DNA from: Myxococcales bacterium
GTDB taxonomy: Bacteria; Lernaellota; Lernaellaia; Lernaellales; Lernaellaceae
Direction of reading: 5' to 3'
NCBI GenBank assembly: GCA_012517325.1
Contig: JAAYVF010000113.1
Span: 1-54,560 of the forward strand
Length of the DNA: 54,560 nt
This document shows positions 41,047-54,560 of the stretch, one piece after another (position 1 is the first letter of the stretch; each line of letters begins with the position of its first letter). The notes under the pieces are model-generated. The model saw only the letters and a list, made by a program, of their open reading frames with translations, did no database searches and was not told the origin of the DNA. The position numbers and the translations under genes are program-made.

Positions 41047-42636
41047 TCAATTCGCGGGGGGCGCGGGCTCCGGCGCCGGTCGCCGCTTCATCACCAAGAG
41101 GCGGTCGCCGAGGTATTGCTGCTCGAAGAGCGGCGCGGCGCGATCGGCGATTGCCGCGAGGTTTTCCCGTTGGCCGGTGGCCACCAGGTGCGAATAGCGC
41201 CCCGCCGCCTGCGGATCGTCCAGGTGCCACAAGCGCGTCACTTCCGGCAGCAGTTCGGCCTCGCGGCGCACCCGGACGATGCCCGTGCCGAACAAGGCCC
41301 GTAAATAGCCGCCGTGCCGGATCACGATGCAGTACGGCAGGTAGCGGTGCGGGTTGACTGAATTGGGGTAGGCGTAAGGGTCGGCCAGCTTGGCGCGGTA
41401 GCTGCGGTTTTCGCGGAAGTGAAAATGCGAATCGGCCAGCACCAGCATGCGCGAATCCCGGCCGATCAACCGTTCCAGTACATTCAGATCCTGGCGATCC
41501 ACGGCCGCCGCCTGGAACCACCACGCCGCGTTCCAGAGCAGCAACGCCCCGAGGGCGGCGGCCAACCGGCGGAACCGGCGCGGATCGAACGGCCGGGCGG
41601 GCAGAATAGTCGCCGGCAGAATCAGCAGCGCGGCGAAGATCAGGCGTTGGCCCGGGCGCAGCAGTTCGTAGATGCGCGTCGGCGCGGCCAGGCCGATCGC
41701 CAGTAGCGCCGCGGCGGTCCAGGCCCAGGGCGAGCGCCAGTCGATCCGCCGCTTCCACGCGGCGTAGCACACCAGGCCGCCGACGGTCAGGATCGTCGCG
41801 GCGTTGATCGCCACGTTGATCCACACCGCCCAGTTCGGCGTCAGCGGGTAATAGCTCGAGGCGATCGCCCACGGCCCGACCTGATACCACGTGTAATAAA
41901 GCGGATTGTGAAACGCGTAGTGAAACCAGAACTGCCCCGCGCGCGACTGGGCGTACCAAGCCAGGCCCAGCAGCGACGGCGCGAAGGAAACGACCAGCGA
42001 CCCGTAGCGCCGTCCGGCGCGCCGGTAAGTCAGGACGGCGTAAATCAGGCAGCCCAGGCCGAGAATGGCGAAGGCCAGGAAGTGGCTGAGGTAGACGGCG
42101 GTCGCCAGCAGGAGGAACGGCGGCCAATGGCGAAGCGGTTTTTCGCCGTGGCGCCGCAACCAGCCGAAAGCCAGGAAGACGAGCGCCAGTCCGAGGATGA
42201 AATTGAAGAACCCCATCAGGAAAAAATGATTGGCCGCGTACAGCGGCGCCAGCAGCTCGGCCGCCGGATAATCCCGCTCGCCGGAGCGCAGGAAATAGAC
42301 CAGCGCCGCGATCCACAAAAGCAGGTAGGCCGCGTAAACCACCGCCGCCGCGGTGAAGACGGGCAGGATTTTCGCCAGGCCGGCGATCAGCACCGTGCCC
42401 AGAATGTTGGGCACGGGACGCCAGATCACCTCGTAATTGCCGGTCCAGCCGGCCTGGGCGGGCGCGGCGATGATCTTCGCCTGCAAGACCCAATCCATCT
42501 GGTCCTGCAGCGGCGACACGTCGGTCAGCAGCGGCCAGGCGGCCACGAACAGCGCGAACGCCGCCAGCAGCCGGTTGCGCCGCCGCCGGGCGTCCCGCCG
42601 TTCGGTCGCGAGGGGTTCGGGCAGTTGATCCTTCAT
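41047..42636 (-). CDS. Polytopic membrane protein, GT-C-like
   Basis: 529 aa with about 11 hydrophobic helices. The first extracytoplasmic loop has DVSPLQDQMDWVLQAK, a possible acidic catalytic loop. The C-terminal ~120 residues form a soluble domain (SRMLVLADSHFHFRENRSYR to YLGDRLLVMKRR) rich in Arg and His. The start at 42636 is an ATG beginning MKDQLPEP; the frame continues open far upstream to 44841, but that part is antisense to the radical SAM gene and is not coding. It resembles other uncharacterised membrane glycosyltransferases in polysaccharide regions. Divergent from the barrel gene at 42760. Confidence 0.65.
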   Translation of the reverse strand: MKDQLPEPLATERRDARRRRNRLLAAFALFVAAWPLLTDVSPLQDQMDWVLQAKIIAAPAQAGWTGNYEVIWRPVPNILGTVLIAGLAKILPVFTAAAVVYAAYLLLWIAALVYFLRSGERDYPAAELLAPLYAANHFFLMGFFNFILGLALVFLAFGWLRRHGEKPLRHWPPFLLLATAVYLSHFLAFAILGLGCLIYAVLTYRRAGRRYGSLVVSFAPSLLGLAWYAQSRAGQFWFHYAFHNPLYYTWYQVGPWAIASSYYPLTPNWAVWINVAINAATILTVGGLVCYAAWKRRIDWRSPWAWTAAALLAIGLAAPTRIYELLRPGQRLIFAALLILPATILPARPFDPRRFRRLAAALGALLLWNAAWWFQAAAVDRQDLNVLERLIGRDSRMLVLADSHFHFRENRSYRAKLADPYAYPNSVNPHRYLPYCIVIRHGGYLRALFGTGIVRVRREAELLPEVTRLWHLDDPQAAGRYSHLVATGQRENLAAIADRAAPLFEQQYLGDRLLVMKRRPAPEPAPPAN

Positions 42637-42759: not shown

Positions 42760-43449
42760 ATGCGAAAGCTGGCGCTGGTGGTGTCGGCGTTGCTGCTGGT
42801 CGGCCTGACAGGCGCTTTGGCCTCGGCGGCGGAAAAGAATTTCGGCCTGGGCGTCAAACTCGGCTATCACAATTTCGTGCGCTACAACCCGACCGACGAT
42901 CCGGACGGCGACGGCGCGCTCGAGGACGGCGAAATCGACTACGCCATCGATTCCGGCGCGTTCGACGGCTTCACCTTCGAGACCGATTTCGAATACAAGT
43001 TTTCGCCGCACTTCGCCCTGGGCGGCGGGTTGCAATGGTACGGCGCCAACGTCAACGTCGACGCGGTCGCCGACCAGAGCCGCGTGCAGGGCGACATCGC
43101 GATGAGCATCACCGGCCTGACCGTGACGCCGAAGTTCATTCTGCCCGTGAACATCGTCAACCTTTACACCGGCGCGGGCCTGGGGCTCTACTGGCGTGTC
43201 ATGGGCTCGTCGTACAAGGTCACCGACCAGTACGGCAACCACACCAGCGAATCCAACGCCGACAGCCAGGGGGCGCTCGGCTACCACGCCCTGCTGGGCC
43301 TGGAGATTTCCGTGCGCGACTGGATCGGCATCGTCCTGGAGGACCGTTTCGCCTTCGTGCACTTCAAGGGCCAGGACCCGGAAACCGATCTGGACGACAG
43401 CGACGCGGGCGGCAATACCGTCTTTCTCGGCACGAGGTTCCATTTTTAA
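42760..43449 (+). CDS. Outer-membrane beta-barrel protein (OmpA/OmpW-like)
   Basis: 229 aa, GGAGGG just before the ATG. Sec signal of about 23 residues (LALVVSALLLVGLTGALASA). The mature protein has about eight amphipathic strands (FGLGVKLGYHNFVRY, FALGGGLQWYGANVNV, LYTGAGLGLYWRVM, YHALLGLEISVRDWIGIVLE). It ends in TVFLGTRFHF, whose final Phe is the BAM recognition signature. An acidic, D-rich loop follows strand 1. The next gene starts at the base after its stop, so it may be cotranscribed with the radical SAM/GT-C block. Confidence 0.85.
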   Translation: MRKLALVVSALLLVGLTGALASAAEKNFGLGVKLGYHNFVRYNPTDDPDGDGALEDGEIDYAIDSGAFDGFTFETDFEYKFSPHFALGGGLQWYGANVNVDAVADQSRVQGDIAMSITGLTVTPKFILPVNIVNLYTGAGLGLYWRVMGSSYKVTDQYGNHTSESNADSQGALGYHALLGLEISVRDWIGIVLEDRFAFVHFKGQDPETDLDDSDAGGNTVFLGTRFHF

Positions 43450-45438
43450 ATGCCCTCCCGGCCGCTTTTGTTTTGCGGAATCACCGCGGTCCATCCCACC
43501 GACCGCGCCCACTACCAGCCGCTGTGCTTTGCTTATCTGGCCGCCTACGCGCGGCGCCATGAACTGCCCGTCCGCGTGATCGTCGCCGCCACGGCCGCGG
43601 AGGCCGTCGCGGCCCGGCCCGATGTGATCGGCGTCAGCGCCAGCAGCGTCAACTGGAGCGCCGCGCGCCGCCTCGGTCGGACGCTGCGGGACGAACTGGG
43701 CGTGCCGGTGCTGGCCGGCGGGCCGCACATCAGCGCGCTGCCGGAAACCCTGCCGCCGGAATTCGCCGCCGCCGTGCTCGGCGAGGGCGAGGAAACGTTT
43801 CGCGAGCTGCTGACGGCCTTCGCCGCGCGCGGCCGTTGGCCCGCCGAGGACTTGCCGCGGATCGCGGGGCTGGCCTACCGCGACGGCGCGACGGTCCGCC
43901 GGACGCCGCCGCGCCCGCCGATCGCCGATCTGGCCGCCGTGCCGCCGCCCGACCGTTCGGTGTTTCCGGATCACGGCGCGCAGGCGCACCTGATGTCGAG
44001 CCGCGGTTGCCCGTACAACTGTCGATTCTGTTCGAGCCGAAGCTTCTGGGGCGGCTGGCGCGCCTTCCCAGTGGCGACGGTGCTGGCGGAGGTCGAGGAT
44101 CTGGTCGAACGGCGCGGCGCGCGCGAAATCCACTTTTTCGACGATCTGTTCGTCGCCGATTATCCCCGCCTGGAAGCGATCGCCGCCGGGCTCGAAGCGC
44201 GCGGCTATCCGGGGCGGATCGAATTCTCCTGCGCCATCCGCGCCGAACTGGCGAGCGAACCCGTCTTCGCGCAACTGGCGCGGCTCGGCTGCCGCCGCCT
44301 GACCTTCGGCGCCGAAAGCCAGGCCCCGCGCATCCTGCGTTGGCTCAAGGGCGACGCGGCAAATATCGGGGCCAACCAGCGGACCCTCGACCTGGCCCAA
44401 CGCCACGGCATCGCCTGCCGGCCCAGCTTCATCAAGGGATCGCCCGGCGAAACCGGCGACGAACTGCTGGCGACCTACGACTTCCTGCTGCGCGGCATCC
44501 GCGAGCGGCGCATCGACTATTTCGAGGTTCATTGCCTGACGCCGTTTCCCGGGACGGCGGTCTGGGATCTGGCGCGCGCGCGCGGGCTGGTCGGCCCGGA
44601 GATGGATTTCGACGAACTGCGCACGCCGTGGGAACGGCTTTACCTCAACGAGGCGATGCCCAAAACCAGCTTCTATTTTTTCGAGAACCTCACGCAAACC
44701 GGAACGCGCTGGCTCGGATTGAGCCGGCGGCGGCTGGTCGGCCTGATCGATATTTCGCACGGCGTCGACCGGCTCGCGGAACTGCAACAAGCGTTGACGG
44801 AAAGCCGTTTTCTCGACGAATGGCGGGCGATCGTCTTTCACGGCGACGTCGATCCGCGGGCGGTGGACATCGCCGGTTTAACGGCCGGCGGGCGCGAACT
44901 GCTGGCGCCTTACCTGACAACCGACGACCCGGCGCTGTTGTTCGTCTATCTGCGGCCCGAGGAAGGGATCGACGTGGACGCCCTGCGCCGCATCGTCTGG
45001 AGTCATTTCGACCGCGACGCCGATCTGACCCTGCACAGCGCCTTCCGCCATTTCGCGCCGGCTTCGCCGTTCGAACGGTCGCTCGCCGTCGGCAACCAGC
45101 GCGGCCTGCGCGCCGGCCTCGAGGCGTTTACCGGCGCCGCCGGCGCGCTGGAGCGATTGCGGCAAAGCGGCCTGCGGATCGAGACGTACCGGCCCGACGA
45201 CGACCCGTTCACGCCGCGCTCCCTCGCCGCGCATTATTTCGCCGCTACGCTGGCCCGCGATTTTCGCATCGATCGGCCCAGGGCGGGCCGCGAACGGCAG
45301 TGGGCCGCCGTCGAGGAGCGCATCGTCACCGACGCCGCCCAAATGCAGGAACGCGCCGCCGCCGGCCGGCGGCCGACGCTGGCTGCGGCCTGCCGGGCGG
45401 CCTGGCGGCGGTTGACCGGTCCCGGCCGTCGGAGTTGA
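43450..45438 (+). CDS. B12-binding-type radical SAM protein (copy 1)
   Basis: 662 aa. The N-terminal Rossmann region (about 25-130) is the cobalamin-binding type (PDVIGVSASSVNW, VLAGGPHISALPE, VLGEGEETF) without an evident DxHxxG His. The radical SAM core has C187, C191 and C194 (GCPYNCRFC) for the 4Fe-4S cluster, then IHFFDDLFVAD, TFGAESQAPRIL, IKGSPGET and TPFPGTAVW. A C-terminal extension of about 240 residues (420-662) is unrecognised. It is the first gene of a five-gene coupled block (3-nt spacing or overlaps) with three GT-C proteins and a paralogous radical SAM enzyme at the far end. Methylation or rearrangement of a lipid or glycan intermediate is inferred from the class (BchE/HpnP-like). 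Confidence 0.84.
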   Translation: MPSRPLLFCGITAVHPTDRAHYQPLCFAYLAAYARRHELPVRVIVAATAAEAVAARPDVIGVSASSVNWSAARRLGRTLRDELGVPVLAGGPHISALPETLPPEFAAAVLGEGEETFRELLTAFAARGRWPAEDLPRIAGLAYRDGATVRRTPPRPPIADLAAVPPPDRSVFPDHGAQAHLMSSRGCPYNCRFCSSRSFWGGWRAFPVATVLAEVEDLVERRGAREIHFFDDLFVADYPRLEAIAAGLEARGYPGRIEFSCAIRAELASEPVFAQLARLGCRRLTFGAESQAPRILRWLKGDAANIGANQRTLDLAQRHGIACRPSFIKGSPGETGDELLATYDFLLRGIRERRIDYFEVHCLTPFPGTAVWDLARARGLVGPEMDFDELRTPWERLYLNEAMPKTSFYFFENLTQTGTRWLGLSRRRLVGLIDISHGVDRLAELQQALTESRFLDEWRAIVFHGDVDPRAVDIAGLTAGGRELLAPYLTTDDPALLFVYLRPEEGIDVDALRRIVWSHFDRDADLTLHSAFRHFAPASPFERSLAVGNQRGLRAGLEAFTGAAGALERLRQSGLRIETYRPDDDPFTPRSLAAHYFAATLARDFRIDRPRAGRERQWAAVEERIVTDAAQMQERAAAGRRPTLAAACRAAWRRLTGPGRRS

Positions 45439-45440
45439 CG

Positions 45441-47540
45441 ATGGCCGGGCGCCGGGCGCTGACGGAAAAGTGGGGCGTCGCGGCGCTGTTCGGCCTGGCG
45501 CTGTTCCTGCGTTTCTGGCGGCTCGCCGCGCAGAGTCTCTGGGACGACGAGGTCGCGACGTTCCGCGCCGCCGCGCTGTCCCTCCGGCAAATCTGGACCG
45601 ACATTCCGCTCATCGATTCGAATCCGCCGCTCATCTACACGGTGTTGCATTTCTGGCGGGCGCTGGGCGAAAGCGAGTTCACCTTGCGCAGCCTGCCGGC
45701 CTTGCTGGGCGCGATCGCCGTACCCGTCGCCTACCTGGCCCTGCGGCGGCCCTTGGGGCGCGCGGCCGCCGGCCTCGCGGCGTTTTGGCTGGCCGTCAAC
45801 CCGCTCGCCGTCTATTGCGGGCAGGAGACGCGCTACAACACGCTGGTGACGCTGCTGGTGCTGCTGGCCGTCTGGGCGCTCACGGCGACGCTCGCCGCGC
45901 CCCGCCGCGCGACGGCGCTGGGCCTGGCCGTCGCCGCCTCGCTGGCGATGTACAGCCACTATTTCTCGTTTTTTCCGCTGGCGGCGCTGGCGCTCTTTTT
46001 GGGGTTGTCGGCCGCGCGGTTGCGGCGTTGCGAAGGGCGGAACGCGACGGCCGAAACCCGGCTGGTTTGGCTCGCCTATTATTCGCGGTCGGCGGTGACG
46101 CGATGGGAGGCCCTGGCGGCGCGCGCGGCCTATCGCGAGGCGATCGGCCGGCAGTGGCGCGGGCTCGCGCTGGCGGCCGGCGCGCTCGTGGCGGCCGCGC
46201 TGTCGTTCGCGCCGTTTCTGAAGTTTTTCACCATTCAGTTGTTGCGCGGCGTGCATTGGCGCGAGTCGTTAGGTACGGCGGAAGTGCTCGAGCGCGCGGC
46301 GGTCTGGACGTTCGTCGGACATAGTGTAACGGCGCCGCCGACCTTTTTCGCGGCGTGGAACCCATGGTTCGCCTTGCATCCGGCAAGGCATCTGGCCCTG
46401 CTGTTCGCGGCGGTGCTGCCGGCGATTGCACTGGCCCTGTACGGCATGACGGCACGCCGCGACGGTGCGCGGCCCTTGGCCTTGCCGGTGCTGGCGCTGG
46501 CACCGGTGGCCGGCGTCACGGCGCTCAGCCGCCTGACGCCGATCTTCGATCCGCGCTACCTGTTGCCGCTGGTGCCGTTCTGGCTGGCCGCGTCGGCGGC
46601 CGGGATGGTCGAGCTGTGGCGGCGTCGCCGGCGGGTGTTGCCGGTCGTCGCGGCGCTCTGGCTGCTGTCGCTGACGGCGCTGAGCCTGAAGGATTACTAT
46701 TATTCGCCGGCGCATTGGCGGCAGGATTGGCGCGGCCTGGCGGCTCGCGTCGCCCGCGAGGCCGAGCCGGACGCCGCCGTGCTGTTTTACAATTTTTACA
46801 CTTCGCTGGCGTTTCTGCATTATTACGAAAAAGCGCCGGCCCGGCCGCCGGTGCAGTACCTGTACGTGCTGGAGGAGCGCTTCGGGCCGCTCGACGACCG
46901 GCGCCGTCGCGTCGCGCAGGTGCTCGACGGCGTCGCGCGCGAATCGCGCCCGGTGTGGTTGATCGACTACCACGGCTACATGGACGATCCGTACGACGAC
47001 GTGCGCCAGGGCTTGCGCGCCCGGCAGTATGCGCTGCTCTTGCGCGAGTGCCGTCTGCCCGGCTTGTGGCGGTATTGCCTTGAACGCTGGGTGTTCGGCG
47101 AGTCGCGCCGGCTGGCCGCGCTGGCTGACGATTTCGATTTCGAAACCCGGCCGCCGGTCGATTGCCAACTGGCCGCCGGCTGGTATCCCGGCGAAGGCCG
47201 CCGCTGGATGGGCGAACGCGCGGAACTCCTTTTTCGGCGACCGGCCGGCCGGGCGCGGCTGCGGCTGCAATTCTTCGTCAACCAGGATTATCTGCGCGGG
47301 CCGCTGACCCTGCGCGTCGCCGCGGCCGGGCAACCGATCGGCGAGGTGACCGTGACCGACACGCGCGACGTGGTCTGGACCAGCCCGCCGTTCGCGGCGC
47401 CGCCCGGCGACGAACCGACGATCCGCTTGTCGCTGGCGGTCGATCGGGTGTTCGTTCCCGATGATGTCCGGCACGACGGCGACCGCGCGGCGAAAAGCAT
47501 TCTCGTCAAAGCGGCGGCCTTGGAGGCGGCGGATGAATAA
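45441..47540 (+). CDS. GT-C membrane glycosyltransferase paralogue 1
   Basis: 699 aa; the ATG at 45441 is 2 nt after the radical SAM stop. About 11 helices with GT39/GT83 signatures: SLWDDEVATF (D35-D36-E37, putative catalytic loop), QETRYNTLV, MYSHYFSFF and DPRYLLPLVP. It has an extra ~45-residue charged cytoplasmic insertion (RRCEGRNATAETRLV onward) absent from its two paralogues. A soluble alpha/beta segment follows the helices. A C-terminal beta-rich domain ends in VFVPDDVRHDGDRAAKSILV, shared with the next two genes. Donor would be polyprenyl-phosphate sugar; acceptor unknown. The stop overlaps the next gene by 8 nt. Confidence 0.82.
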   Translation: MAGRRALTEKWGVAALFGLALFLRFWRLAAQSLWDDEVATFRAAALSLRQIWTDIPLIDSNPPLIYTVLHFWRALGESEFTLRSLPALLGAIAVPVAYLALRRPLGRAAAGLAAFWLAVNPLAVYCGQETRYNTLVTLLVLLAVWALTATLAAPRRATALGLAVAASLAMYSHYFSFFPLAALALFLGLSAARLRRCEGRNATAETRLVWLAYYSRSAVTRWEALAARAAYREAIGRQWRGLALAAGALVAAALSFAPFLKFFTIQLLRGVHWRESLGTAEVLERAAVWTFVGHSVTAPPTFFAAWNPWFALHPARHLALLFAAVLPAIALALYGMTARRDGARPLALPVLALAPVAGVTALSRLTPIFDPRYLLPLVPFWLAASAAGMVELWRRRRRVLPVVAALWLLSLTALSLKDYYYSPAHWRQDWRGLAARVAREAEPDAAVLFYNFYTSLAFLHYYEKAPARPPVQYLYVLEERFGPLDDRRRRVAQVLDGVARESRPVWLIDYHGYMDDPYDDVRQGLRARQYALLLRECRLPGLWRYCLERWVFGESRRLAALADDFDFETRPPVDCQLAAGWYPGEGRRWMGERAELLFRRPAGRARLRLQFFVNQDYLRGPLTLRVAAAGQPIGEVTVTDTRDVVWTSPPFAAPPGDEPTIRLSLAVDRVFVPDDVRHDGDRAAKSILVKAAALEAADE

Positions 47541-49440
47541 GCGGGTGCTCGAGGCGGTGATCGGCGTGGGCCTGTTCGGCGCGGCGGCGGGCCTCGGGCT
47601 TTATCACGGCGCGGTGCGCGGCACCTGGACCGACGAGGCCGCCACGGTCTACCTGCTGACCAAGTCGTGGGGCGAGATCTGGCGCATCGCGGTGACGCAC
47701 GACGTGAACCCCTTCGGCAGCTATTTGTTGTGGCGGCTCTGCCGGCTGGGCGGCGATTCGCTGTTTTATCTGCGCGGGTTGTCGGCGCTTTGTTTCGCGA
47801 TCAGCACCGTGTTGCTGTACCGGCTCGGATTGCGGGTCGGCCGGCGGGCCGCGGCGCTCTGGGCGGCGCTCTTTTTCCTGGCGACGCCGCTCGCGCAGTT
47901 CCTGTCGGCCCAGGTTCGTTACCCAATGTTGCTGACCGCCGTCGTCCTGGCGTCGGCGCTGGCGCTGCTGCGGCTCGTCGAAACCGGCCGGACCGGCGCC
48001 GCCGTCGCCTGGGCGCTGTTCGGCGCGGCCTCGTTCCACGTGCACTACTTTGCCGGGTTCGTCTTGCTGGCCGAAGGATCGTTCGCGCTGTTGGCGGCAC
48101 GGCGCTCGCCTTGGCGAAAAAAGATTTTCCTGGCGGCGGCGGGATTGGTTGCCTTGATTTTGCCGTGGCTGCCGGTGCTGATCGGCCAGCTCATCGGGCG
48201 CGAGGCGGCCGGCGGCGGCGAACCGGTGCGCTGGACCCTCTTGTCGCCGTTGACGCTCGTTTATCTGACGCAGGGTTTTCACTACTGGCAGTTGCCGCGC
48301 TTCTGGGCCGATCGGCTCGCGCCGCGCGCCGATTATCTGCCGCTCGTTTTGGCCTTGCCGTTTTTAACGGCGCTTGTTCTGGGCTCGTTGCCTGGCGGGC
48401 GCGAGCCGGACAAACGCCGGTTGCTGCTGTGGCTGGGATGGGGGCCGATGGCCGCGTTTTTAGCCGTTTCGCTGGTGTTGCAATTGTTCAGTCCGCATTA
48501 TTTTCTGCCGTTTCTGCCGTTCCTGACGCTGCTGGCCGGCAACGGTTTGACCTGGCTTTGGGCGCGCTCCAAGACGGCGGCGGGCCTGCTGGCGGTGGCG
48601 GTGACGGTCGTCACCCTCGGCGGCGCAGCGGAGTTGTGGCAGCACCCTAATTGGCCCGAGGGGTGGCGGCCGATCGCGCGGACGATCGCCGCGGCGGCCG
48701 CGCCCGGCGACGTGGTCGTGCTGCCGAATCTGCCGGCGCGCCTCTGCTACTCGCTGGAAAAGCGGGATTCGCTGCCGGTGTTTCACCTGACGCAAGGTAC
48801 GCCGGGACGGCAGATCGTCGCGCCGCGGGCGGCCGCGGAGGCGATGGCGGCGCTCGCCGCGCGGTATCGCCGGGCGCTTTTCGTGACCTACTATCCGTCG
48901 CGTTTCGATCCGACCGGAGCGGTGGCGCGCGAGGCGGCGCGGCAAGGCGCCACGGTCACGCCCGTGCCGGGATTCGCCGATCCGCGGGTCGGGCTGCAAT
49001 TCATCTATTTCCGTTCGCCTTTCGAACCGGGCGGCATGGCGCCGCAAATCCGCTTCCCGGCCGGCGCCCAGCACCCGCTGCAACTGGCGGCAGGGTTTTA
49101 TCCCGATCCGGCCGCCGAATGGTGGACCGCCGGCGAGGCGCAGGTGTTGTTGCCGCGGCCGCCCGACGGCGCGCGCCTGGAGATCGACGCGACCGTGCCG
49201 TTGACCTTGTTCGATTCGGCGCTGCCGACGATTACGGTTGCGATCAATAGCCGGCCGGTGCCGACGCTGGTTATGCCGGAAGGCCGCCTGCGACTCGGGC
49301 CGATTCCGGGCCCGTTCGCCGAACCGTGGGTGGTGGTCGATTTGTCCTGCCGTCCGACGTTCGTGCCCGATGTGCTGTTCCACGACGGCGACCGGCGGCC
49401 CAAGTGCCTGCTGGTCCGGTCGATCGGCTGGAGCCGCTGA
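47533..49440 (+). CDS. GT-C membrane glycosyltransferase paralogue 2
   Basis: 635 aa; the start at 47533 lies in the last 8 nt of paralogue 1, with GGAGGCGG upstream. Signatures align with its neighbours: TWTDEAATVY (D34-E35), QVRYPMLL, FHVHYFAGF and SPHYFLPFLP. After about 11 helices a soluble segment (about 380-500) and a C-terminal beta domain follow, with TFVPDVLFHDGDRRPKCLLV near the end. No cytoplasmic insertion. The stop shares one base with the next start (TGATG). Confidence 0.82.
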   Translation: MNKRVLEAVIGVGLFGAAAGLGLYHGAVRGTWTDEAATVYLLTKSWGEIWRIAVTHDVNPFGSYLLWRLCRLGGDSLFYLRGLSALCFAISTVLLYRLGLRVGRRAAALWAALFFLATPLAQFLSAQVRYPMLLTAVVLASALALLRLVETGRTGAAVAWALFGAASFHVHYFAGFVLLAEGSFALLAARRSPWRKKIFLAAAGLVALILPWLPVLIGQLIGREAAGGGEPVRWTLLSPLTLVYLTQGFHYWQLPRFWADRLAPRADYLPLVLALPFLTALVLGSLPGGREPDKRRLLLWLGWGPMAAFLAVSLVLQLFSPHYFLPFLPFLTLLAGNGLTWLWARSKTAAGLLAVAVTVVTLGGAAELWQHPNWPEGWRPIARTIAAAAAPGDVVVLPNLPARLCYSLEKRDSLPVFHLTQGTPGRQIVAPRAAAEAMAALAARYRRALFVTYYPSRFDPTGAVAREAARQGATVTPVPGFADPRVGLQFIYFRSPFEPGGMAPQIRFPAGAQHPLQLAAGFYPDPAAEWWTAGEAQVLLPRPPDGARLEIDATVPLTLFDSALPTITVAINSRPVPTLVMPEGRLRLGPIPGPFAEPWVVVDLSCRPTFVPDVLFHDGDRRPKCLLVRSIGWSR

Positions 49441-51401
49441 TGGACCGCGGGCTGCCGTACGACGCGATTTTCGGCGAACGCGAAGCGGCGCTGAAGGTGA
49501 CTTTTTTAACCGGCCTGGCGTTGCTGCTGCGCTATTTATGGTTTGATGCTCAGCCGCTCTGGACCGACGAGGCGATCACCTGGGAGTTCGCGAAGACCGA
49601 CTTCGGCGGCCTGCTTTTGCGGCAGCTTTACGACGCCAGCCCGCCCGGTTTTTACCTGTTGCTCAAGGCCTGGCTCGGCCTGGCGCGGTCCAACGAGGAG
49701 ATGCGCTGGCTGACCGTCCTGCTGGGCGCGGCGACGGTGCCGGCGACCTACCTGCTCGGCGCCCGCCTAAAAAACCGCGCGGCGGGCCTGCTGGGCGCGT
49801 GGCTGGTGGCGATCAATCCGCTGCATTTCTATTACAGCCTGGAAGTCCGCTACCCGGTGCTGCTGACTTTGCTGCTGACCCTGCAAATCCTGCTGTTCGG
49901 CGAATGCCTCCGTGACGGCGCCCGGCGCCGCTGGATCGCCTGGAGCGCCGTGACCGCCCTGGCGTTGTGGGTCCAGTATTTCACCGGCTTCGTCGTCCTG
50001 GCCGAGGTCGTCTACCTGCTGCTGGATCGCGAGCGGCGGCGGTCAACCGGGCGCCTGGCTGTTTCGCTGCTCGCGGTGGCGCTGCTTTTCCTGCCGTGGT
50101 GGACGGAATTCACGCTGCAACTGACGCGCGGCAAACCGACGCGGCAGTTTTTCGGTTGGTTCGAGCGGCTTTTCCTCGGGCCGGCGTTCCTGACGCTCGG
50201 CGGATCGGAATGGAGCCTGCCCTCACTATTGGGCCGGCTACCCGACGACCGCGGCTATCTGGCTGTCGCGCTGCTCCTGATGGCGCCGTTCGCCGTTGCC
50301 CTCGGACTGGGCATCCGGCGGGAAAAGCAGGAGCGGTCGCGCTACCAACTGACGTTCATCGTCGCGGCGACCTTCGTCGCGTTTCTGGCCGCGGCTCAAT
50401 TCCTGCCACTGTTCCGGCCGAAGTACCTGTTGCCGCTGCTGCCCCCGGCGGCGGTGCTGGCGGGCGACGGCCTGTCCCGGCTCGCCGGCCGGCGGCGATG
50501 GGCGGCATGGCTTCTGTTCCTGGCGATCTCGGCCGTCTCGCTGCACGGCGTCGCGGCGGTGGCCACCGATCCGCTGCTGGGCAAGGAACCGTGGCGGGAG
50601 GTGGCCGACCGGCTGGGTCGCGACGGGCGGGAGGGCGACGTGATCGCGGTGCCGAATCGCTATTATGCCCTGGCGCTGGAACTGGCGGTCGCCGATCGCT
50701 GGCCGATCGTTTCAATCGTGGGCGACTCGCCGTACGAGCAGCTGGCGCGTCCGGACCAGGTGGCGCGGATCGCCCGGCGCCTGTTCGCGCGGGCGGAACG
50801 CGTCTGGTACATCGATCACGATTGGCGGTTGTTCGATCCGCGCGAGGTCGTGCCGGCGACCCTCGGCGAGATCGGGCGGGAGGCGACGCGGCTTGTGTAT
50901 CCGCGCGGACGGCATTTTTCGTTGCGGCTGTTCGCGCGCGACGAGGCGGCTGCCCGCGACAGTCGGAGCGGCGTCGTCGATTTCCAAACCGGCGATTACA
51001 CGCCGGAGCAGTCGCTCGACGGTTGGTCGCCGGGCCCGCCCGGTTTTCGCTGGCTGAGCGAAAGCGCGGCGGTGCGGGTGACGCGCCGCTGGGGCGAGGA
51101 TCTGGCGTTCGCCTGTTTTTACGTCCACCGGCCGTACTTTACGGACGGCCCGCCGACCTTTAGGTTGTGGGTCGACGAGCAGGAGGTCGCGGCGCGCCGG
51201 GTGGACGAAAGCGATCTGATCTGTCTGGAAGGCATGCTCGGGCCGGCCGCGCGCGAGCGGCGCGAGGTCGTGCTGCGCCTGACGACGGACCGGACGTTCG
51301 TTCCGGCGGCGGTCCGGGGCGACGGCGACCGGACGCCCCGGAGCGCCCTGGCGGCGCGGCTGGGATTGCACCGCACGGGATTTTGTTGGGAGAAGCCATG
51401 A
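49440..51401 (+). CDS. GT-C membrane glycosyltransferase paralogue 3
   Basis: 653 aa; the start at 49440 is set by the TGATG junction and excludes the longer frame from 49326. Same plan as its neighbours: LWTDEAITW (D43-E44), LEVRYPVLL, LWVQYFTGF and RPKYLLPLLP, then a soluble segment and the C-terminal domain ending TFVPAAVRGDGDRTPRSALA. The presence of three tandem copies suggests sequential addition of different sugars, or one sugar at different positions. The stop overlaps the second radical SAM gene by 4 nt. Confidence 0.82.
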   Translation: MDRGLPYDAIFGEREAALKVTFLTGLALLLRYLWFDAQPLWTDEAITWEFAKTDFGGLLLRQLYDASPPGFYLLLKAWLGLARSNEEMRWLTVLLGAATVPATYLLGARLKNRAAGLLGAWLVAINPLHFYYSLEVRYPVLLTLLLTLQILLFGECLRDGARRRWIAWSAVTALALWVQYFTGFVVLAEVVYLLLDRERRRSTGRLAVSLLAVALLFLPWWTEFTLQLTRGKPTRQFFGWFERLFLGPAFLTLGGSEWSLPSLLGRLPDDRGYLAVALLLMAPFAVALGLGIRREKQERSRYQLTFIVAATFVAFLAAAQFLPLFRPKYLLPLLPPAAVLAGDGLSRLAGRRRWAAWLLFLAISAVSLHGVAAVATDPLLGKEPWREVADRLGRDGREGDVIAVPNRYYALALELAVADRWPIVSIVGDSPYEQLARPDQVARIARRLFARAERVWYIDHDWRLFDPREVVPATLGEIGREATRLVYPRGRHFSLRLFARDEAAARDSRSGVVDFQTGDYTPEQSLDGWSPGPPGFRWLSESAAVRVTRRWGEDLAFACFYVHRPYFTDGPPTFRLWVDEQEVAARRVDESDLICLEGMLGPAARERREVVLRLTTDRTFVPAAVRGDGDRTPRSALAARLGLHRTGFCWEKP

Positions 51402-53287
51402 AACGCATCGTTTTTCACCTGGTCAGCGGCCCCGACGATTTGCGGGATTACGCCCCGCTGGGGTTCGGCTATCTGGCGGCATTTCTGGACAAGATGGAGT
51501 TCGCGGCGCGCTGCACGGTCGAGGACGATCTGGAAGCCATCCTGGCTATCAATCCGGACGTGATCGGCCTTTCCTGCGCCTCGCAGAATTACGGCCTGGC
51601 GATCGAACGCGCGCGACTCTTGCGGCAACGCACCGGCGCGAAGCTGGTTTTGGGTGGCGCGCACATCTCCTGTCTGCCGGAAAGCCTGGATCCGGCGTTT
51701 CATTGCGGCGTGGTCGGCGAGGGCGAGGACACGTTTCATCACCTGATGCGCGTGCTGGAAAAAACCGGCGACCTGGCGCCCGCCGATCTGGCCGAGGTTT
51801 ACGGCTTGGTCTATTGGCGGGACGGCCGCCTCGTCCGCACCGAGGACCGCGCGCCGATCGACCCGCTCGATTCCGTCCCGCCGCCCGACCGGTCGATTCT
51901 GCCGCCGGCGCGGTTGACGCACCTCATGACCGGCCGCGGCTGCCCCTACGACTGCCGGTTTTGCGCCAGTAACCGCATGTGGGGCGGTTATCGCGGCTTC
52001 AGCGCCGAGCGCGTGGCCGCCGAACTGATCGATTTGATCGAAGACGGCCACCGGCGCATCTACATTCACGACGACCTGTTCGTCGCCGATCCGTACCGCC
52101 TGATCCAGGTGGCCGATATCCTCGAGGAAAAGGAACTGCTGGGCGCGGCCGAACTCAGTTGCACCGTCCGCGCCGACCTGGTGGACGACGACCTGTGCGA
52201 GATTCTCTTTCGCCTCGGCGTCACCGCGGTCACCTTCGGCTTCGAAAGCGCCGACGACGACACCCTTGAACGCTTAAACAAGCGGCAGACGGTCGACCAG
52301 GCGCGCGCGACCCTGGCCACGCTCGACCGTTACGGCATCGAATGCGCCGTTTCGGCCATCGTCGGCGAACCGGAAGAAACGCTGGAATCCATCCGCGCCA
52401 CCTATCAGTTCCTGGCCGACGAGGCGGTGCGCGGCCGGCTTTCCGAGGGCGAGGTGAATATCCTGGCGCCGTTCCCCGGCACCGAATATTGGGACCGCGC
52501 GGTGAAGCTCGGCCTGGTCGGCGACCCGCTAAAATTCGATTGGTCCCGAGTGGGTTCGCCGTGGCGCGGGCTGTTGCTCAATCCGCTGATTGCGAAGGAG
52601 GCGGCGCGTCTGATCGGTTGGGATCATCGCCTGCGGGGGATTTTCGCGGCGCTGGCGCGGCCGTTGGTGTTGCTGGCGACCGACGAGGCCGACCTCGATC
52701 TGGACATCGATCCGCGGCTGGTCCGGGCGATTTTCCTGTTGTCCGATGAGGAAGGCGTCGCGGAAGTGGTTTCGGAGGGCGAGGTGACCCTGCTGCGATA
52801 CGGGCCCGACGAATTTCTCGACGAGTTGGCCCGCCTGGCCGACGAATACGGCGACTCGCCCCTGGTGCTGTTCGCGCCGGAACCGGAGCAGGCGACGATG
52901 GCGGTCATCCGCGCCTGCAAACTCGGCGCGACCCTGCTCGGCAAACCGTTCGTGCGATCGCGCACCGGCGAGTTTCCGCTGATGGCTCGTTTGCAAAATG
53001 CGCTCGGCCTGGGCGGCGATCCGTTTCTCAGCCTCGTGGCCGGCGATGATGAATTCCTGCCGGAGATGGCGATCGCGGAACCGGCCAAACTGCGCGAATT
53101 GCCTTACAGCGACCTGGCCAAACCGGTTCCGCATACCGAGGATGCCGTCAAGCTGCTCGATCGGTATGCGGCGGAACTGCAGGCGCGCCGCAAGGAAGCC
53201 TTCGAATCCGCGATGCGAGAGCAGGAAAAAATCCGTCCGGTTCCTTCCGAGGAAGAAGAATACGAGGATGATATAGAGGAATTTTAG
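51398..53287 (+). CDS. B12-binding-type radical SAM protein (copy 2)
   Basis: 629 aa, paralogous to the protein at 43450. Cobalamin-type N-terminal domain (PDVIGLSCASQNYG, LGGAHISCLPE, VVGEGEDTF), cluster Cys182, Cys186 and Cys189 (GCPYDCRFC), IYIHDDLFVAD, TFGFESADDDTLE, VGEPEETLESI and APFPGTEYW. The C-terminal ~230 residues differ from copy 1: DEADLDLDID, PEPEQATMAVIRACK and LSLVAGDDEFLPEM, with a strongly acidic tail (PSEEEEYEDDIEEF). The start overlaps the upstream stop (ATGA). It closes the coupled block. Substrate unknown. Confidence 0.84.
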   Translation: MKRIVFHLVSGPDDLRDYAPLGFGYLAAFLDKMEFAARCTVEDDLEAILAINPDVIGLSCASQNYGLAIERARLLRQRTGAKLVLGGAHISCLPESLDPAFHCGVVGEGEDTFHHLMRVLEKTGDLAPADLAEVYGLVYWRDGRLVRTEDRAPIDPLDSVPPPDRSILPPARLTHLMTGRGCPYDCRFCASNRMWGGYRGFSAERVAAELIDLIEDGHRRIYIHDDLFVADPYRLIQVADILEEKELLGAAELSCTVRADLVDDDLCEILFRLGVTAVTFGFESADDDTLERLNKRQTVDQARATLATLDRYGIECAVSAIVGEPEETLESIRATYQFLADEAVRGRLSEGEVNILAPFPGTEYWDRAVKLGLVGDPLKFDWSRVGSPWRGLLLNPLIAKEAARLIGWDHRLRGIFAALARPLVLLATDEADLDLDIDPRLVRAIFLLSDEEGVAEVVSEGEVTLLRYGPDEFLDELARLADEYGDSPLVLFAPEPEQATMAVIRACKLGATLLGKPFVRSRTGEFPLMARLQNALGLGGDPFLSLVAGDDEFLPEMAIAEPAKLRELPYSDLAKPVPHTEDAVKLLDRYAAELQARRKEAFESAMREQEKIRPVPSEEEEYEDDIEEF

Positions 53288-53383: not shown

Positions 53384-53620
53384 ATGAAAATGTCTCTGCT
53401 TCAGGCAATCAATAATGCGGTGTCGGGCATTCGTGTCGCCGGCGTCAGCGCCGAAAAAGCGGCCAGTGGGATTTCTCAATTTGGCATCAGCTCCAAGCAG
53501 GATACCATGCCGCAAGACATAGTGTCCTTGAAGATCGCCAAGGCTTCCGTCGAAGCGGATGTTGCGGTCGTGCGCAAAACCCAGGAAATGCATCAGGCTT
53601 TGCTCGATCTGGTGGTGTAA
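53384..53620 (+). CDS. Flagellar rod/hook-like miniprotein (Flg_bbr_C type)
   Basis: 78 aa. The N-terminal AINNAVSGIRVAGVSAEKAA resembles the start of FlgB/FlgC/FlgE rod and hook proteins. The C-terminal half (DIVSLKIAKASVEADVAVV, then RKTQEMHQALLDLV) matches their conserved coiled-coil C-terminal segment. The whole central domain is missing, so this is a minimal stand-alone version. GAAGG lies 6 nt before the ATG; a second ATG at 53390 is possible. No other flagellar gene is in the window. The sigma-28-like promoter upstream supports a motility link. Confidence 0.65.
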   Translation: MKMSLLQAINNAVSGIRVAGVSAEKAASGISQFGISSKQDTMPQDIVSLKIAKASVEADVAVVRKTQEMHQALLDLVV

Positions 53621-53626
53621 AAGCCA

Positions 53627-54067
53627 TCATTTACCGGCTTTAAATTTCTTTAATACCCAATGAAAAAAATGTTTAAAAATGGACAGGATACTTCTGAACC
53701 GTTTATCCAATGTTTGATCATAATACTTGACTTTCGTTTCGGTTCTTATTCTATTATCCGGCGAAAATTCAGTACTTATTGTCATTGAACTTAAGTTATC
53801 ATTAATTCTTTTATTTTCAATTATCAACTCAACATCATCGGAGATCATTTGTTTCCGCATTTTACTAAAATAGTCGGCCTCTTTGCAATAAGGCCCAATT
53901 TCGTTGTTGGATAAAAATATTGTGTTGTCAGAATCATTATTAGAATCAGGATCTTCCTCTTTTTGACTTATCATTTTAGTTCGGTCTTCAATACGGGAAA
54001 TGCCGTCTTGTTTCGAAGTGAAAAAAAACTTCGATTGCTCTTCTTCAATCCGGCTTTTCCTGGTCAT
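53627..54067 (-). CDS. Hypothetical protein in AT-rich island
   Basis: 146 aa, hydrophilic and rich in N, D, S, K and I, with a C-terminal amphipathic or membrane-binding helix (RSILSIFKHFFHWVLKKFK). GGGAGA lies upstream of the ATG. Codon use is AT-rich and quite unlike the preceding 53 kb, suggesting recent acquisition. It starts 4 nt after the stop of a small membrane ORF, so the two may form an operon. No family recognised. Confidence 0.5.
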   Translation of the reverse strand: MTRKSRIEEEQSKFFFTSKQDGISRIEDRTKMISQKEEDPDSNNDSDNTIFLSNNEIGPYCKEADYFSKMRKQMISDDVELIIENKRINDNLSSMTISTEFSPDNRIRTETKVKYYDQTLDKRFRSILSIFKHFFHWVLKKFKAGK

Positions 54068-54071
54068 TAGT

Positions 54072-54254
54072 CTATTCTCCCGCGCTCACTTCGACATTAT
54101 CTTTAATCAGCATAAATCCAGAAAAAATAGTAACGAAAACACGTCCAAATCCAAGGATGGATAAATAGCCAATGGTGTTGGATGAAAAAGCAAGAAATAT
54201 CGATTGAATGAAACGAATGAAAAAGACATATTCAATCATTTCTGGTGTTGTCAA
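54072..54254 (-). CDS. Small hydrophobic protein in AT-rich island
   Basis: 60 aa with two likely membrane segments (MIEYVFFIRFIQSIFLAF and YLSILGFGRVFVTIFSGFML) and an acidic tail. It is immediately upstream (4 nt) of the hypothetical gene at 53627-54067 on the same strand. Short length and atypical composition keep confidence low. It could be a small membrane partner, a toxin-like peptide or a chance ORF. Confidence 0.35.
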   Translation of the reverse strand: MTTPEMIEYVFFIRFIQSIFLAFSSNTIGYLSILGFGRVFVTIFSGFMLIKDNVEVSAGE

Positions 54255-54560
54255 GAATATTTTCCCTTTTCAGTAATCGTGTTTTCTACTAAAGCTAGAC
54301 CATGTGGAATGGGGACAGACTATATTGTACATCCAGGTGGTAAAAGGATAATTGGGGATTTAGCCGTGCGGGTTAAAGTGAATATATTCAGACAAGACAG
54401 ATAGGTGATAGATATGAAAACATACTGACCCCCTTTGAAGGCGAGACACCTGATAGAGTGATGTTGGGTCGTGTTGCGGTTGCGACGGACGGAGGCCGGA
54501 GGCCGACGGGAGCCGCAACCGCGACGGCCGCACCACCCGGGGGTATCGATGTCCAAGGAA
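54255..54560. other. Island edge without a credible gene
   Basis: 306 nt. The first ~170 nt are AT-rich with no supported ORF. It then switches sharply to GC-rich sequence at about 54420, containing the inverted repeat at 54476-54522. A stretch GGGGACAGACTA (54311-54322) resembles sequence I associate with REP/IS200-type elements, but no transposase is present in the window. Confidence 0.4.
54476..54522. repeat. Imperfect stem-loop: 9-bp inverted repeat
   Basis: GCGGTTGCG (54476-54484) pairs exactly with CGCAACCGC (54514-54522) around a 29-nt GC-rich loop that itself contains the direct repeat GGAGGCC. Possibly the terminus of a mobile element continuing beyond the window. Confidence 0.5.

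What the first reader, a model, noticed from the sequence alone, without database searches (positions are those of the whole stretch)
43450..53287. Radical SAM / triple GT-C / radical SAM operon: candidate new glycan or lipid modification system
Five genes in a row are coupled (2-nt gap, 8-, 1- and 4-nt overlaps). Two paralogous cobalamin-type radical SAM enzymes with different C-terminal domains enclose three paralogous GT-C membrane enzymes, and an outer-membrane barrel gene abuts the 5' end (0-nt gap). B12 radical SAM enzymes methylate or rearrange unactivated carbons, for example in hopanoids; GT-C enzymes transfer polyprenyl-linked sugars outside the membrane. A pathway making a modified polyprenyl-sugar or methylated surface glycan and attaching it at several positions would explain the set.
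Basis: partly seen in the sequence, partly recalled or inferred. Interest (0 to 1): 0.82.

Follow-up and report, generated by a model that had tools for sequence, protein, structure and literature searches.

The report
Radical-SAM/triple-glycosyltransferase surface glycan operon
Five tightly packed genes, conserved in order in three of the seven genomes held of an unnamed bacterial phylum, pair two vitamin-B12-type radical enzymes with three membrane sugar-transferases and most likely make and attach an unusual modified sugar on the cell surface; no such gene set turned up in the papers searched.

Summary
In detail: junctions and families are as described. The order rSAM1-GTC1-GTC2-GTC3-rSAM2 recurs in two related MAGs (49-63% identical in another genus; about 27-39% in another family, where every junction is a 4-nt overlap) and is absent as a set from the other four genomes held of this phylum. 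The barrel is a neighbour only within the window's family. In a fourth genome rSAM1 and the GT-Cs are gone and the rSAM2 orthologue survives as an open frame that lost all three cluster cysteines. Outside the phylum, seven fetched relatives of the rSAM clade all sit in polysaccharide loci; one is fused to a GT2 and to the GT-Cs' own C-terminal domain, another is coupled to a GT-C. Hopene cyclase was not found in any carrier, which speaks against hopanoids as substrate. Best reading: an envelope-glycan module in which the cytoplasmic rSAMs alter a sugar (C-methylation, deoxygenation or epimerisation) that the GT-Cs attach. Substrate, chemistry and acceptor are inferred. New variant of a known kind.

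The parts
42760..43449 (+). outer-membrane beta-barrel gene; neighbour of the unit in family f1 only, membership uncertain
   Evidence: PF13505 35.9 bits; directly upstream of the unit in G000 and G002 and of the rSAM2 remnant in G001; in G003 unlinked, 31% identity
43450..45438 (+). rSAM1: B12-binding domain (residues 23-121), radical SAM domain (184-346, cluster cysteines 187/191/194), unassigned C-terminal extension of about 250 residues
   Evidence: orthologues L025:2281-4266 and L027:16201-18195(-)
45441..47540 (+). GTC1: PMT_2-type GT-C glycosyltransferase with C-terminal soluble domain
   Evidence: PF13231 45.4 bits; W34/D36/E37 invariant across nine GT-Cs; orthologue group 95/95
47533..49440 (+). 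GTC2: PMT_2-type GT-C glycosyltransferase
   Evidence: PF13231 50.4 bits; orthologue group 85/89, not starred
49440..51401 (+). GTC3: PMT_2-type GT-C glycosyltransferase
   Evidence: PF13231 49.0 bits; orthologue group 94/96
51398..53287 (+). rSAM2: B12-binding domain (17-116), radical SAM domain (178-339, cluster cysteines 182/186/189), C-terminal extension unlike that of rSAM1
   Evidence: cysteines lost in the G001 orthologue

Best explanation
An envelope-glycan modification module of, probably ancestrally, six genes. Step 1 (inferred): in the cytoplasm the two soluble B12-type radical SAM enzymes act in turn or as a pair on a sugar, as nucleotide sugar or polyprenyl-phosphate sugar, and install a change such as a C-methyl branch, deoxygenation or epimerisation; their unlike C-terminal extensions would give different substrate or partner specificity. 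Step 2 (inferred from the GT-C class): the polyprenyl-linked sugar is flipped and three GT-C enzymes, each for a different acceptor or position, transfer it outside the membrane onto a surface glycan. Step 3 (inferred; gene absent from the window genome): a membrane SGNH enzyme adds or removes an acyl group. Shown: gene order, overlaps, conserved motifs, orthology by position, polysaccharide context of the rSAM clade, no hopene cyclase found. Not shown: substrate, chemistry, acceptor.
For: Five-gene order kept across two families, with translational-coupling overlaps. Sixth gene SGNH with Ser, RND and DxVHxN motifs, 4-nt overlap with rSAM2 in three relatives. rSAM cluster cysteines and GT-C WxDE motif invariant in the carriers. 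In G001, which lacks rSAM1 and the GT-Cs, the rSAM2 orthologue lost all three cysteines. rSAM clade relatives lie in polysaccharide loci: 7 of 7 fetched genomes plus the Woesearchaeota one; one is a GT2/rSAM fusion carrying two copies of the GT-C C-terminal domain, one is rSAM-GT1-PMT_2. Control with models from non-clade loci: 7/9 against 26/73 have a glycosyltransferase within 5 kb, p=0.02. Hopene cyclase found in none of G000-G003.
Against: No substrate evidence. Both families are abundant in the genome. The unit is not obligatory as a whole: G000 lacks the SGNH gene and G001 keeps SGNH with a dead rSAM. The rSAM C-terminal extensions match nothing and were largely not modelled. 36% of other B12-rSAM loci also have a nearby glycosyltransferase. 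Only three anonymous draft MAGs carry the full order.
Confidence: 0.55

Rival explanations
1. The rSAM pair alters the lipid part: it methylates or rearranges a polyprenyl or acyl chain of an envelope glycolipid that the GT-Cs then glycosylate.
For: Both rSAMs hit lipid-acting families at sub-threshold scores: HpnJ, the ladderane-type TIGR04072, HpnR. An SGNH lipase/acylhydrolase-type gene is attached to the unit in relatives.
Against: Those scores lie far below the curated cut-offs. Hopene cyclase not found in any carrier. The closest outside relatives sit among glycosyltransferases and one is fused to a GT2.
Confidence: 0.2
2. The rSAMs modify a peptide or protein (RiPP-like chemistry) and the GT-Cs O-glycosylate that protein, as PMT enzymes do.
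For: Highest-scoring NCBIfam model for both rSAMs is ApyD, a RiPP enzyme; PMT_2 is named after protein mannosyltransferases.
Against: ApyD scores 122 and 98 bits against a cut-off of 750. No precursor-peptide gene lies inside the unit, and the junctions leave no room for one. I did not search for precursor peptides elsewhere.
Confidence: 0.1
3. Loose assembly: genes from two very abundant families became neighbours and are co-transcribed without one shared pathway.
For: 58 B12-rSAM-like and 60 PMT_2 match places in the genome; parts are missing separately in G000 and G001.
Against: Order and overlaps are kept across two families at about 27-39% identity; rSAM2 lost its cluster ligands in the one genome that lacks its partners; a clade rSAM is fused to a GT2 and the GT-C C-terminal domain.
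Confidence: 0.1

Closest known systems
Cobalamin-dependent radical SAM methylases, class B (TokK, CysS, TsrM, MgmA); fold relatives AprD4 and OxsB
   Same: N-terminal B12-binding domain plus radical SAM core; these are the best solved matches by sequence and by predicted fold
   Different: Core identity only about 17-22%; C-terminal extensions match nothing; cobalamin use and methyl transfer not tested. That AprD4 acts on an aminosugar is stated in its PDB title
Hopanoid radical SAM enzymes HpnJ and HpnR
   Same: Same superfamily (HpnJ 71 and 93 bits, HpnR 38 and 71 bits)
   Different: Far below cut-offs of 578 and 650 bits; hopene cyclase not found in the carriers
PMT_2 GT-C glycosyltransferases (PF13231; sub-threshold match to TIGR03663/Agl23)
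   Same: PMT_2 domain above cut-off, multi-spanning by hydropathy, invariant W-x-D-E
   Different: No solved relative at E<=0.01 with the nine-sequence profile; donor and acceptor unknown; C-terminal domain absent from Pfam
Radical SAM-GT-C coupling elsewhere (G222 L190; Elusimicrobia L068)
   Same: B12-rSAM gene(s) coupled to a PMT_2 GT-C in a sugar locus
   Different: One GT-C, not three; no enclosing rSAM pair; L068 rSAMs fall outside the clade

Membership tests
Cobalamin-binding radical SAM superfamily | B12-binding domain followed by radical SAM domain | tested here: met
   PF02310 and PF04055 above cut-offs in both
Cobalamin-binding radical SAM superfamily | CxxxCxxC cluster motif | tested here: met
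   C187/C191/C194 in rSAM1 and C182/C186/C189 in rSAM2, invariant in G000, G002, G003; not met in the G001 remnant
Class B radical SAM methylase | binds cobalamin and transfers a methyl group | not testable with these tools
   fold match only; needs biochemistry
Hopanoid HpnJ / HpnR | score above the NCBIfam curated cut-off | tested here: not met
   best 93 and 71 bits against 578 and 650
Hopanoid HpnJ / HpnR | host makes hopanoids (squalene-hopene cyclase present) | tested here: not met
   not found in G000-G003, found in G004 and G005, which lack the unit
ApyD-type RiPP radical SAM | score above the NCBIfam curated cut-off | tested here: not met
   122 and 98 bits against 750
PMT_2 GT-C glycosyltransferases | PMT_2 domain above the gathering score | tested here: met
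   45-50 bits against 26.1
PMT_2 GT-C glycosyltransferases | acidic motif in the first external loop | tested here: met
   W34, D36, E37 invariant in nine sequences; loop placement is from knowledge of the fold, not modelled
SGNH hydrolase (sixth gene, relatives only) | catalytic Ser, block III Asn and Asp-x-x-His | tested here: met
   GGSN, RND and DxVHxN in all three; PF13472 57-80 bits; no full-length orthologue in the window genome

The most novel reading that the evidence does not exclude
A dedicated pair of B12-radical SAM enzymes makes a radical-modified (C-branched, deoxygenated or epimerised) polyprenyl-linked sugar, and three separate GT-C enzymes place it at different positions of a surface glycan. 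In one relative the second enzyme survives as a cluster-less pseudoenzyme coupled to the SGNH gene.
Probability: 0.35. Interest if true: 0.65.

Novelty: new variant of a known kind. Interest (0 to 1): 0.5.

Why it matters
Many B12-radical SAM enzymes have no assigned substrate, and this genome alone has 58 matching places. A conserved unit that ties two of them to three GT-Cs, with outside relatives in polysaccharide loci and one fused to a glycosyltransferase, points to surface sugars as a substrate class that can be tested with single enzymes. The loss pattern in G001 (partners gone, cluster ligands gone) is a natural experiment on which parts depend on each other.

Tried and rejected
Hopanoid or HpnJ-like role: rejected for the carriers on missing hopene cyclase and low family scores; the genomes are drafts, so absence is not absolute. 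Private triplication of the GT-C trio: rejected (AU p=0.005). rSAM1 C-terminus as a degenerate GT2-like domain: suggested by eye, no support (hhalign probability 0.1% from small alignments; Pfam none for the window copy). Relatives by single-protein pattern scan: none in genome or viral contigs. Naming the phylum: not achieved; genome handles are anonymous and no near named relative came back. First glycosyltransferase-neighbour control used models built partly from the clade itself; replaced by models from non-clade loci only. Wzy_C family is in all seven genomes and does not discriminate. Literature: no paper held with radical SAM + GT-C + glycosyltransferase + cobalamin, B12-binding + radical SAM + O-antigen + exopolysaccharide, three of GT-C/polyprenyl/SGNH/glycan modification, or radical SAM enzymes + polysaccharide biosynthesis + genomic context; one off-topic paper.

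Full report
Observation. Pfam confirms B12-binding plus Radical_SAM at both ends, PMT_2 in the three middle genes and an OMP beta-barrel upstream. Both rSAMs have no predicted TM segment; the GT-Cs have six to eight by a simple hydropathy count, which is a lower bound. The two rSAM C-terminal extensions show no relation to each other, and the window copies match nothing in Pfam; the rSAM1 extension finds nothing convincing in the PDB.

Base rate. The genome (5.25 Mb MAG, 134 contigs) has 58 B12-rSAM-like and 60 PMT_2 match places. Adjacency alone would be weak evidence, so conservation has to carry the argument.

Conservation. The phylum is represented by seven held genomes. The order rSAM1-GTC1-GTC2-GTC3-rSAM2 is present in the window genome G000, in G002 (same family, other genus; 49-63% identical) and in G003 (other family; about 27-39% identical). 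In G003 every junction of the unit is a 4-nt overlap; in G002 the junctions from GTC1 through the SGNH gene are 8- or 4-nt overlaps, while the start of G002 GTC1 is unclear because of N bases there. In G001, G002 and G003 the unit continues into an SGNH-hydrolase gene, with a 4-nt overlap and Ser, RND and DxVHxN motifs intact; G000 has no full-length orthologue. The barrel is a neighbour in family f1 only; in G003 the unit follows a MurJ-like gene (identified by eye) and the best barrel homologue is on another contig.

Natural experiment. G001 keeps barrel and SGNH and an open frame related to rSAM2 (37% identity; grouped with the f1 rSAM2 genes at 100/98, on a long branch), but shows no rSAM1 and only weak GT-C matches elsewhere. 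In that frame the CxxxCxxC cysteines are all replaced (GRGSPFEDGILGG), and the GxES-like and GxIxGxxE-like stretches are altered too (GE and GXIXGXXE motif names from PMC9692996). Loss of the partners goes with loss of the radical chemistry, as expected if rSAM2 catalysis serves the same pathway. This rests on one genome.

Phylogeny. Each GT-C position has a positional counterpart in the other family: GTC1 95/95 (starred), GTC3 94/96 and GTC2 85/89 (both unstarred). The nine operon GT-Cs are not one clade (AU p=0.005); GTC1 is sister to a GT-C of other loci (C71/C309/C48), and the C71 copy has no rSAM neighbour in the fetched stretch. rSAM1 and rSAM2 each form a supported group across the three genomes (99/98 and 95/93) and fall, with nine outside relatives, in one clade (97/98); their exclusive sister relation is only 71/63. 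The trio therefore did not arise by a private tandem triplication alongside the rSAM pair.

Outside relatives. A search of 386 genomes with the rSAM1 profile gave 12 genomes outside the phylum with a strong match (only the top three candidates per genome were scored, so this may be an undercount). The seven fetched all lie in polysaccharide-type loci: G277 has one 1056-aa protein made of GT2, the GT-C C-terminal domain, the rSAM, and that domain again; G222 has rSAM-GT1-PMT_2; G262 rSAM-GT2-GT1-GT1; G270 a Wzt-type ABC protein, pyruvyl transferase and capsule synthesis; G213 GT1-flippase-rSAM-methyltransferase-GT1; G325 a polysaccharide flippase directly before the rSAM; G035 PelG and a GT1 (PelF-like) beside the rSAM. 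The Woesearchaeota relative is near a GT1; the Sumerlaeota one has no such neighbour. In a control with models built only from non-clade loci, 7 of 9 clade loci against 26 of 73 other B12-rSAM loci have a glycosyltransferase within 5 kb (p=0.02). An Elusimicrobia contig outside the clade has rSAM-rSAM-PMT_2 in a sugar locus.

Substrate. Squalene-hopene cyclase was not found in the four genomes with the unit or its remnant, and was found only in two without it, which speaks against hopanoids. By sequence the best solved relative is AprD4, an aminosugar diol dehydratase by its PDB title, followed by B12-type radical SAM enzymes; Foldseek gives MgmA, TsrM, CysS, AprD4, TokK and OxsB. This fits a radical reaction on a sugar but does not prove it; methylation, deoxygenation and epimerisation are all open.

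Verdict. A real, conserved unit, best read as an envelope-glycan modification module. The component families are known; the combination was not found in the papers searched. Limits: few and anonymous draft MAGs, C-terminal extensions largely unmodelled, no biochemical evidence.

Noticed in passing
window 53400-54560: Sharp drop to 37-40% G+C after the unit (65-70% before), with a 146-aa ORF at 53627-54067(-) without Pfam match; possibly an insertion.
   Followed up: no
window 53390-53620; L026:16128-16358; L025:14308-14538: A 76-aa ORF of one conserved family (40-42% identical to the window copy) flanks the unit downstream in all three f1 genomes; by eye its end resembles flagellar rod/hook proteins.
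   Followed up: partly
G000:C64 (L172:5552-13944), G000:C74 (L175:4636-9270): Very long frames with several radical SAM matches each: a 2423-aa frame with four, followed by an SGNH-hit frame, and a 1544-aa frame with at least two.
   Followed up: partly
L189:8102-11272 (minus strand): One 1056-aa protein: GT2, a domain like the C-terminus of the window GT-Cs, a clade radical SAM, and that domain again.
   Followed up: yes
window 41047-42465 (minus strand): Membrane-protein-like gene without Pfam or NCBIfam match, 61% identical to the gene beside the barrel in G001.
   Followed up: no
L068:9929-14353: Elusimicrobia contig with two radical SAM genes and a PMT_2 GT-C overlapping in a row, next to GT2 and GFO/IDH/MocA genes.
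   Followed up: partly
G004:C78 and G005:C137: Within the held genomes of this phylum, squalene-hopene cyclase was found only in these two, which lack the unit.
   Followed up: no
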